Source: Dehalococcoidia bacterium (GTDB taxonomy: Bacteria > Chloroflexota > Dehalococcoidia > SpSt-223). Taken from it: DNA of 32,375 bases. Under the pieces are notes generated by a model. It was not told the origin of the DNA. It made no database searches and saw nothing but the letters and a program-made list of their open reading frames with translations. The stretch's first letter is position 1. Every line of letters begins with the position of its first letter. The stretch is from assembly GCA_025054935.1 (NCBI GenBank), contig JANWZD010000002.1, forward strand, positions 402,131 to 434,505. The letters are read 5' to 3'. A program made the position numbers and the translations under genes. Of this stretch, positions 26,715 through 29,863 are shown one piece after another.

Positions 26715-27329
26715 CTAGCGAGAATGGCCACTTAAGTCGGGACGATGCGAGTCAAGCTCCTCGAAGGGCGGTCCGCCCGTATAGTCGAACAATTCCCAGC
26801 CCACCACCTCAATATCTGCCCCCTCGGCCTTTGCGGCGAGGTCGGCGAAGCCGAGGGTAGCATTTTCGATCCCGAGGCGGGAAGCGAGCGCCCGGCAGCG
26901 GTCGACGGCAGGCATGCTCGGCGTTTCAAGGACGGCTCGAAGGTGGTCAGCGCGAACGCCTGGGATTGCGTACGGCAGCAGCCGCTCCGGCTGGCCCCGC
27001 AGCGCCTCCCGCTCCTCGGGAGCGGCTTCGCCAAAGAAATCCGGATCGCTCGCGTACTCGTCCTGCAGGGTGCCGTCTTCAAATAGGAGATAGAAAAAGA
27101 CCTCGCCCTGCATCACCATCAGCGCGATTGCAGCGCAGCGGAGCGCTCCGCTCAGGCGAGCGGCAATCTCGGTCAGCCGGGCGAGGTCGCCCTCCGCTGC
27201 CTGACGGTCAAAGACGGTGACCCAGCCCAAAATTGGGGGAGAGATGAACGCCTCGCCATCATCAAGCAGGTCATAGACCGCTTCGTGGTCATCGGTACGA
27301 ACGGAGACACTCGCGAACGTCTCGCTCAC
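26715..27329 (-). CDS. Uncharacterised protein coupled to the nucleotidyltransferase fusion
   Basis: The 204-residue acidic cytosolic protein has no signal peptide. It starts [22 protein letters not shown] central strand-rich part reads [22 protein letters not shown], followed by [12 protein letters not shown] and [24 protein letters not shown] near the end. I do not recognise the family, and no catalytic motif stands out. The GTG start at 27329 overlaps the stop of the upstream fusion gene as GTGA, so the pair is translationally coupled. A role in sugar-nucleotide or glycan metabolism is possible by association only. Confidence 0.75.
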
Positions 27330-29836
27330 CGCTCCCCTTGGAGCCCGGCAACCAGTCCGGCGTACTTATCGAGCAGCGCTTGTGCTCCCTCCGATGAATT
27401 CGACTCGGCAATCACGTGAAAGAGCGGGCGGTCAGGGTCGGGAAGAATGAGCACCCATTCGCGCCCGAGGTCCACCTTGACCCCATCGACCTGATGGGTC
27501 TGGCGGTCGCGGAATTGCTCATTCAGCAGACGCATCACCCGTCCTTTCGCCTCCCACGGACAGCGTACCTGCCGGCGCATCAGGTAGAAGGGCGGGAACG
27601 AGCGGGCGAGGGTGGCCAATCGCCGGCGCGACCGTGAGAGGAGTTCGACGAGCTTGAGCACGGCATACAGGCCGTCCATCGCGGGGCTGAACGCCGGGAA
27701 GATCAGCCCCCCTTCGAGGTCGGCCACAAACGCGGGGGCATGCCGGACCGCCGCCGCCATTAGCGCCTGTTGGCTCACTTTCGTTCGGATCACCGTGCCG
27801 CCGTAGCGGTCGGCGAGGTCATCAAAGATCCGCGGCGCCGAGACAGGAACCGCGATCGTCGCGCCGGGATTTTGCTCGAGCACCATCGAGGCGACTAAGG
27901 CCGCAAGCAGGGCGCCGTCGATCACCTCTCCCGTGTCATCTACGACATAGATCTTCTCGCCGCCCGGCTCAAGACGGACGCCCATATTCGCCCGCAGCGC
28001 AGCCGTAATGGCCGCCAGCTGCCGCATCGCCTCATCAAACTCCTGCGGCGACCGCGCCAGCTTCGTCTCGTCGATGGATGCATTGAGGCTGACGACATTC
28101 AGCCCCAACTGGCTGAACAGGACCGGAAGAATGTTCGAGGCGGTAGCGTGCGCATAGTCGACGACGATTGTCGTTGCTTCGGCGGGGGGAGTAGAGAACA
28201 GGTCGAGCGAGCGCCGATATCCCTCAATATAGCGCTCAACGAGTTGCGGCGCCTCCATGATCCGCCCGATCTCATCGAGATACGTCCGGCGGAAATCCTC
28301 GCGGAAGAAGGTGTTTTCTATCTTCCGCTCGAACGCCTTGTCGATATCAAGGCCGTTGGCATCGAACAGTTTGATATCGACAATCCGGGTGTCATACGGC
28401 GAGAGCCGCACGTGGACGCCGCCGATCGCGTCGGTAACGCGGGTGATATACCGCACCACCGGGATCGGGACGCTCTTGACGTCGATGACATCGACTCCCG
28501 CCGAGGGGACGCCGGCGATGAGTGCCCGCTTGATCATCCGCGGCGTGTGATGGGGATCGCGGCTCATGATGACGGATGAGCCTTTCGGAAGCGTTGCGCC
28601 GTAGGCCGCCCCCAGCTTAGCAGCGAATTCGGGGGTGAGGTCGATATTGACCAAGCCGGAGATACCGTAGCGGCTGAACAGGTTCTTTCGCCCCTGCGAC
28701 CCCCAAATGATGCTCGTGGAGACGGTTGCTCCCGCCTCAATCTCTTTATCGGGCCAGATCTTGACGCCCGGCTGGATGATCGCGCTCTCACCGACCACCG
28801 TGTTGTCGCCGATCACCGCCCCTTCGAAGATCATCGCCTTCGCTTTCAGCGTGACCTGTCGGCAGATGATCGCTCCGCGCACTTCTGCCCGCTCGCCGAT
28901 GTAGGCGCCTCGCCAGATAATGCTCCGGTCGACTTGGGCGCCGACATCAACCACGGTGCCGGCGCGGATGACACTCGGCCCGTAAATAACCGCTCCGCTC
29001 TTGATCTGGCAGTCCGCGCCGATGTAGACAGGACCGCTAATCAGCGCATCCGGAGCAATATCGACATCCTCGCTTTCGAGGTAGACATCTGGCAGCTGTG
29101 GATGCTTGATCCCGATCGGCCCGACATTCACCCTACCGGCGAGCAGATCACCGGATGCTCGATGATATTCCGGGATGTTGCCGATATCGCACCAATACCC
29201 GCTAGAGACATAGCCGAAGAGCGGTCGCCCCTCGGCCAACATACGAGGGAAAACTTCTGCGCTAAAGTCGACCGGGCGGTTGGGCGGAATGAACTCAAAG
29301 ATTGAGGGTTCGAGGACGTAAATTCCCGTGTTGACCGTGTCGGAAAAGACCTCGCCCCAGCTAGGCTTCTCTAGAAATTGACGAATTGCTCCGCTCTCAT
29401 TAATGATGACCACGCCGTATTCAAGCGGATTCGGCACGTTGTAGAGAGTGAGCGTCGCTTCAGCGCGCTTCTCGCGATGATAGGCGATAATCTTGCCGAT
29501 ATCGAAATCGGTAAGCGCATCGCCGCTGATAACGAGAAACGTTTCTGTCAGCTGATCGCGGGCAAGGCCGACCGATCCCGCTGTACCGAGCGGCGCTTCT
29601 TCAATGCTATACGTAATCTGCAGGCCAAGGCCACTGCCATCGCCGAAATAATCCTGGATCTGCTCTGCCAGATACTGCAGCGTCACGATCACCTCGGTGA
29701 TGCCATGCCGCTTGAGCAGGAGCAAAATATGTTCGATGCAGGGGCGGTTAACCACCTGCACCATCGGCTTTGGTCGACCGATCGTAAGCGGGCGAAGACG
29801 GGAGCCTTCCCCCCCGGCCATGACGACGGCTTTCAT
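27326..29836 (-). CDS. Sugar-phosphate nucleotidyltransferase fused to left-handed beta-helix and degenerate phosphomannomutase-like domain
   Basis: This is an 836-residue fusion. Residues 1-235 form a nucleotidyltransferase with [34 protein letters not shown] and LEKPSWGE. Residues about 240-385 carry hexapeptide repeats of a left-handed beta-helix. Residues about 390-830 resemble phosphomannomutase. In the last part the catalytic Ser loop TASHNP is replaced by VRLSPYDTR, and the metal loop DGDADR by EPGGEK, so mutase activity is doubtful. Similar fusions occur in cyanobacteria and are often annotated as mannose-1-phosphate guanylyltransferase. GDP-mannose supply for the PimA-like enzyme is a reasonable inference. 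ATG 29836 was chosen, with GGAG nine bases before it. A TACAAT box lies at 29864-29869. Confidence 0.9.
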
Positions 29837-29863
29837 AGCGTCACTCTCCGTTGCCTCCACAGC

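What the first reader, a model, noticed from the sequence alone, without database searches (positions are those of the whole stretch)
27326..29836. Nucleotidyltransferase fused to a phosphomannomutase-like domain with dead catalytic loops
The phosphoserine loop and the DGDADR metal loop of the mutase domain are replaced ([15 protein letters not shown]), yet the 440-residue domain is retained. It may sense a sugar phosphate and regulate the attached transferase.
Basis: partly seen in the sequence, partly recalled or inferred. Interest (0 to 1): 0.52.

Follow-up and report, generated by a model that had tools for sequence, protein, structure and literature searches.

The report
Sugar-nucleotide synthase with retired mutase domain
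This bacterial protein joins what looks like a working sugar-nucleotide-making enzyme to a second enzyme domain that has lost its own chemistry but is still carefully preserved in many bacteria, so it probably now helps control or assemble its partner.

Summary
ORF 27326-29860 (minus; likely ATG start 29836) encodes a nucleotidyltransferase, a left-handed beta-helix and a complete phosphohexomutase fold. All four mutase active-site loops are replaced, not only the two reported. This is the hallmark of a large family: none of 194 distinct full-length relatives carries T.SHN or DGD.D, and the phosphate loop RxSGTEP has mostly become acidic LPDx(D/E)xP. The replaced domains group apart from intact mutases, are under purifying selection, and carry a fusion-specific CPWxxKGxVMR motif. 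In 300 Chloroflexota genomes the domain was seen only with the transferase, apart from apparent gene fragments. The transferase signature is intact; the genome holds two intact mutases elsewhere. Best reading (inferred): a non-catalytic, cis-acting regulatory or assembly domain. Sugar-phosphate sensing is weakened by the acidic phosphate loop, and GDP-mannose is not established as product. The one described relative found, SCO1388 (matched by architecture only), was called apparently bifunctional, yet its disruption had no reported effect. New variant of a known kind.

The parts
27326..29860 (-). whole fusion gene as an ORF from GTG (844 codons); likely real start ATG at 29836
29144..29833 (-). 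nucleotidyltransferase domain, residues 10-239; [11 protein letters not shown]...PKP, SGDALTD, EKP and WCDIG intact
28706..29113 (-). left-handed beta-helix (hexapeptide) linker domain, about residues 250-385
28289..28684 (-). pseudo-mutase subdomain I (PGM_PMM_I), residues 393-524
27929..28234 (-). pseudo-mutase subdomain II, residues 543-644
27596..27910 (-). pseudo-mutase subdomain III, residues 651-755
27353..27595 (-). pseudo-mutase subdomain IV, residues 756-836 (no Pfam hit; shown by 9du5 alignment and fold match)
28385..28408 (-). replaced phosphoserine loop RLSPYDTR (canonical TASHNP)
27953..27970 (-). replaced metal loop EPGGEK (canonical DGDADR)
27707..27721 (-). replaced sugar-binding loop DLEGG (canonical EExGG)
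27425..27445 (-). replaced phosphate-binding loop LPDPDRP (canonical RxSGTEP), now acidic
27530..27562 (-). fusion-specific conserved motif [11 protein letters not shown] in subdomain IV

Best explanation
An NDP-sugar pyrophosphorylase of the GMPPB/ManC-CugP kind carries at its C-terminus a pseudo-phosphohexomutase. Shown: the transferase signature is intact; the mutase fold is complete; every catalytic loop is replaced in all relatives read; the replacements are conserved and under selection; the domain was found only with this transferase. Inferred: the pseudo-domain no longer interconverts sugar phosphates but acts in cis as a regulatory and/or assembly module, tuning activity or oligomerisation of the transferase, as catalytically inactive GMPPA does for GMPPB and as the beta-helix does in VTC1. 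If it binds a ligand in the old pocket, this is more likely a metal ion, a cationic or neutral molecule, or an internal basic segment than a sugar phosphate. Product undetermined.
For: Most transferase signature residues at 0.97-1.00 weighted conservation. Loops replaced in 194 of 194 distinct fusions read, 15 of 15 control mutases intact. Fused domains one side of a branch, SH-aLRT 100, 26 fused against 15 intact. Approximate dN/dS of the mutase part 0.025 and 0.060 against two near relatives and 0.178 against a 65% one, equal to or up to twice that of the transferase part (dS near saturation). Loop columns more conserved than random mutase columns: 98 of 10000 random sets as high. A mutase-only query matches 141 of 300 Chloroflexota genomes, the same tally as the whole protein, and all listed rows sit in fusion-length frames except pieces in G180, G296 and G223 and a 596-residue frame in G166. 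Own genome has two other, intact mutases. Model pLDDT 90, Z 45.3 to 9du5, rmsd 2.3 over 443 residues. Precedents: GMPPA is catalytically inactive beside active GMPPB; VTC1 without its C-terminal 139 residues keeps about a third of activity (PMC9168903, passages).
Against: No biochemistry. The Ser column is kept in 143 of 194 and two acidic metal-loop positions mostly persist (D1 Asp in 152, D3 Glu in 176 of 194), so a new metal-dependent activity is not excluded. Disruption of sco1388, the only described relative found, gave no reported phenotype, so physiological weight is unknown. No coordinates were at hand to show contact between the domains. The loops diverge in some Actinomycetota and Bacillota, where loop 3 is partly deleted, so one shared ligand is doubtful.
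Confidence: 0.52

Rival explanations
1. Neofunctionalised enzyme: the rebuilt acidic pocket (SPxD, DxxGE, LPDxD) catalyses a new reaction, perhaps on the product of the transferase.
For: Family-specific motifs replace the old ones rather than decaying; Glu at the third metal position in 176 and Asp at the phosphate-loop Ser position in 184 of 194; H483, E635 and P807-D808 conserved.
Against: The Ser column is not Ser in 51 of 194 and the sugar loop is partly deleted in many Bacillota; no single catalytic set is universal apart from P-D and E.
Confidence: 0.2
2. Sugar-phosphate sensor: the dead site still binds a hexose phosphate and gates the transferase.
For: Fold and pocket scaffold retained; Lys or Arg kept at the NGxK position in 110 of 194.
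Against: Phosphate-binding Arg lost in 188 of 194, mostly to Leu, and the Ser and Thr positions acidic in 186 (Asp 184, Glu 2) and 177 of 194.
Confidence: 0.13
3. Vestigial domain: drift after loss of activity, kept only because the protein needs a folded C-terminus.
For: The mutase part is less conserved than the transferase part (median pair identity 0.46 against 0.63).
Against: Low dN/dS; the changed loops are more conserved than the domain average; motif CPWxxKGxVMR near-invariant; retained across several phyla.
Confidence: 0.1
4. True bifunctional GDP-mannose pyrophosphorylase plus phosphomannomutase, as print says SCO1388 appears to be.
For: Domain annotation; statement in PMC5982138.
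Against: Catalytic His, Asn, middle Asp and phosphate loop missing; intact mutases exist elsewhere in this genome.
Confidence: 0.04

Closest known systems
SCO1388 of Streptomyces coelicolor (PMC5982138, passages read)
   Same: Described architecture: nucleotidyltransferase plus phosphomannomutase domain in one chain.
   Different: Streptomyces and Nonomuraea plasmid proteins that I read (L143, L144, L145, L156) all have the replaced loops.
Archaeal PMM/PGM 9du5, 1wqa (TIGR03990-like)
   Same: Whole mutase fold, about 30% identity, Z about 45.
   Different: All four catalytic loops replaced; fused behind a transferase.
GMPPB / VTC1 GDP-mannose pyrophosphorylases and 8x7s (tlr0611), named UTP--glucose-1-phosphate uridylyltransferase
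   Same: Transferase plus beta-helix, Z about 41-42; best sequence match 8x7s.
   Different: No mutase domain in these chains; substrate of the window protein unknown.
GMPPA-GMPPB and KONJAC-VTC1 regulation
   Same: A related fold without catalysis controls an active pyrophosphorylase.
   Different: There the inactive partner is a transferase paralog in trans, here a mutase fold in cis.

Membership tests
alpha-D-phosphohexomutase (PMM/PGM/GlmM), active enzyme | four-subdomain fold | tested here: met
alpha-D-phosphohexomutase (PMM/PGM/GlmM), active enzyme | phosphoserine loop TxSHNP | tested here: not met
   RLSPYD here; T.SHN in 0 of 194 distinct fusions
alpha-D-phosphohexomutase (PMM/PGM/GlmM), active enzyme | metal loop DGDxDR | tested here: not met
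   EPGGEK here; DGD.D in 0 of 194
alpha-D-phosphohexomutase (PMM/PGM/GlmM), active enzyme | phosphate loop RxSGTEP | tested here: not met
   LPDPDRP here; Arg kept in 6 of 194
TIGR03990 archaeal-type GlmM equivalog | curated score cut-off | tested here: not met
   279.2 bits against 439
NDP-sugar pyrophosphorylase (PF00483) | GGxGxRLxPLT...PKP signature, metal Asp in SGD and DIG, EKP | tested here: met
mannose-1-phosphate guanylyltransferase (NF052502) | curated score cut-off | tested here: not met
   279 bits against 440
mannose-1-phosphate guanylyltransferase (NF052502) | GTP and Man-1-P as substrates | not testable with these tools
   needs enzyme assay
pseudoenzyme-regulated pyrophosphorylase (GMPPA-GMPPB like) | inactive domain changes activity of the active one | not testable with these tools
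   needs kinetics with and without the C-domain

The most novel reading that the evidence does not exclude
A widespread class of allosteric sugar-nucleotide synthases uses a retired mutase, rebuilt once into an acidic pocket, as a built-in sensor of a ligand other than a sugar phosphate (a metal ion, a polyamine or a protein partner), controlling envelope or storage sugar supply in many Chloroflexota, Actinomycetota and Bacillota.
Probability: 0.25. Interest if true: 0.72.

Novelty: new variant of a known kind. Interest (0 to 1): 0.5.

Why it matters
The family is very common: matches at E <= 1e-100 in 141 of 300 Chloroflexota genomes, 124 of 296 of the phylum of G342, an Actinomycetota genome by its record title, and 146 of 299 of the phylum of G340, titled Bacillota; some of these are transferase-only or fragments. 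It is named in public records as sugar phosphate nucleotidyltransferase and, for SCO1388, in print as apparently bifunctional. If the mutase half is dead, flux models that count on it for Man-1-P or Glc-1-P are wrong, and a bacterial in-cis counterpart to GMPPA-type control becomes directly testable.

Tried and rejected
Conserved neighbourhood: the window's neighbours (CCA-adding enzyme, PF01883 protein, peptidase MA, 204-residue ORF) were found in at most six of 114 fusion loci, all of the same genus or the window's own genome, so the neighbourhood gives no function. A galT-like gene lies directly upstream on the same strand in 13 loci, 12 of them soil Chloroflexi MAGs of the CF_ series (distances are from stop-to-stop frames and overlap in part), and an epimerase gene lies convergent downstream in Ktedonobacteria; suggestive of UDP-sugar metabolism, but confined to single clades.

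Adjacent separate transferase and intact mutase genes occur in same-class genomes (L089, L090, L096, L104, L113) and archaeal plasmids (glmM-glmU). I considered these as the unfused ancestor, but the tree does not place the fused domain inside any of them.

Bacillota copies with matches ending near residue 657-676 looked like another architecture; reading four of them showed the full fusion with an Ala/Ser-rich insert.

Literature: (nine searches of the held open-access library; listings only unless stated) found no paper that treats this domain as inactive. Only SCO1388 in PMC5982138 was found as a described member, and by architecture only. PMC7401256 (passages) says sll1558 is CugP with UDP-glucose pyrophosphorylase activity; whether sll1558 belongs to the fusion family was not tested.

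Numbering caution: alignment A1 and the AF2 model lack the first residue (my coordinate), so their numbers are one lower than the protein numbering used here.

Full report
WHAT IS THERE. Pfam finds NTP_transferase (10-239), a beta-helix (259-360) and PGM_PMM I, II and III (393-524, 543-644, 651-755), all over cut-off. Subdomain IV has no Pfam hit but aligns with 9du5 to residue 831. An AF2 model from 55 aligned sequences (pLDDT 90, pTM 0.72) matches 9du5 at Z 45.3, rmsd 2.3 over 443 residues, and GMPPB (7d72_E) at Z 42.3, rmsd 2.0 over 350. Foldseek ranks 9du5 first.

THE LOOPS. The phmmer alignment to 9du5 is gap-free at all four active-site loops: TASHNP against RLSPYD, DGDADR against EPGGEK, EENGG against DLEGG, RASGTEP against LPDPDRP. 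The word dead needs two qualifiers: the Ser column itself is kept in this protein, and the first and third metal positions remain acidic. What has gone is the His-Asn-Pro after the serine, the middle Asp, and the Arg-x-Ser-Gly-Thr phosphate grip. The roles of these residues in catalysis are established knowledge of the phosphohexomutase family, recalled, not tested here.

THE FAMILY. I read 212 full-length fusions, 194 distinct over the mutase part (sources counted). They come from the 80 best loci of one genome scan (truncated ones dropped), top hits, five plasmid hits, and 60 stretches hand-picked mainly from lower-scoring rows (L218 is truncated and not counted). Not every match was read. 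None of the 194 contains T.SHN or DGD.D anywhere in the mutase part (regular expression on raw sequence). By alignment column: Ser 143; first metal position Asp 152; third metal position Glu 176, Asp 3; Arg of the phosphate loop kept in 6, its Ser position Asp in 184, its Thr position Asp or Glu in 177. All 15 control mutases (14 from loci plus 9du5) keep Ser, His, Asn, the three Asp and the phosphate-loop Arg, Ser and Thr. An earlier set of 100 distinct fusions gave the same picture.

CONSERVED, NOT ERODED. Approximate dN/dS (Nei-Gojobori, dS near saturation) of the mutase part is 0.025 against L004, 0.060 against L005 and 0.178 against L006, beside 0.024, 0.030 and 0.094 for the transferase part. 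The four loops are more conserved than random mutase columns (mean JSD 0.570 against 0.495; 98 of 10000 random sets as high; 100 rows). In the 194-row alignment these columns stand out by weighted frequency: P807 1.00, D808 0.93, H483 0.87, E635 0.85, and the motif C767-P-W769-x-x-K772-G773-x-V775-M776-R777, whose numbered residues are at 0.85-0.97. The motif is absent from the 15 control mutases. Against this, the mutase part as a whole is less conserved than the transferase part (median 0.46 against 0.63 identity).

ONE ORIGIN, ONE PARTNER. In a quick maximum-likelihood tree of 26 fused domains (hand-picked from the 100 distinct) and 15 intact ones, each group is one side of a branch (SH-aLRT 100; quick method, one long branch, L146). 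The loop columns were not removed before this tree was built, so part of the split may rest on the loops themselves. With the mutase part alone as query, 141 of 300 Chloroflexota genomes match at E <= 1e-45, the same tally as with the whole protein at 1e-100. All listed frames are of fusion length except G180 (a piece starting at a contig end), G296 (397 residues, its transferase half at the end of another contig), G223 (adjacent pieces, which look like frameshifts) and G166 (596 residues; one search reports a stop inside this copy). So I saw no convincing free-standing copy.

THE TRANSFERASE. Most residues of the signature GGxGxRLRPLT...PKP, SGD, EKP, NTG and WxDxG are at 0.97-1.00. Its substrate is open. 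NF052502 (mannose-1-P guanylyltransferase) scores 279 against a cut-off of 440. 8x7s, named UTP--glucose-1-phosphate uridylyltransferase, is the best sequence match of this part (224 bits against 175 or less for GDP-mannose enzymes), while by fold GMPPB and 8x7s are close (Z 42.3 and 40.7). The genome also holds a rmlA, a galU, a single-domain relative 42% identical (L149) and a shorter one (L151), and two intact phosphohexomutases (L001, L002). So the cell need not rely on the fused domain for mutase activity.

LITERATURE. PMC5982138 (passages) reports that SCO1388 appears to be a bifunctional GMP and phosphomannomutase, that its disruption left phage sensitivity unchanged, that double mutants with it were no different from the other singles, and that it probably contributes little to GMP activity. 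I did not see its sequence; four actinobacterial plasmid members (L143, L144, L145, L156) have the replaced loops. PMC9168903 (passages) supplies the precedent that catalytically inactive GMPPA assembles with active GMPPB and that VTC1 without its C-terminal 139 residues keeps about one third of activity.

MECHANISM. Shown: intact transferase signature, full mutase fold, loop replacement in everything I read, selection, exclusive linkage in the Chloroflexota sample. Inferred: a cis-acting regulatory or assembly module. A new metal-dependent activity stays possible because two acidic metal-loop positions and often the Ser persist.

LIMITS. Phylum names for rest on record titles of L075 and L068. 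About 18 of the 146 matching genomes have best E-values only between 1e-104 and 1e-132 and were not listed row by row, so they may be transferase-only or fragments; at least G474 is transferase-only and several rows are truncated. No coordinates were available, so no contact between domains was measured.

Noticed in passing
26715-27329 (-): 204-residue ORF overlapping the end of the fusion gene by 4 bases; no Pfam family over cut-off (DUF4687 at E 0.0025), seen only in the same genus.
   Followed up: partly
L257, L258, L259, L260: Second fusion copies in Bacillota genomes with a long Ala/Ser-rich low-complexity insert in mutase subdomain III.
   Followed up: partly
L050-L058, L060, L065, L083, L248: galT-like gene directly upstream on the same strand of the fusion gene in 13 loci.
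   Followed up: partly
L145:5624-6004: On a Streptomyces plasmid a STAS-domain gene overlaps the start of the fusion gene and an AGE-family epimerase precedes it; an intact mutase lies nearby.
   Followed up: no
L049: A fusion gene in a MAG labelled Devosia groups with Chloroflexota in the tree; probably mis-binned or transferred.
   Followed up: no
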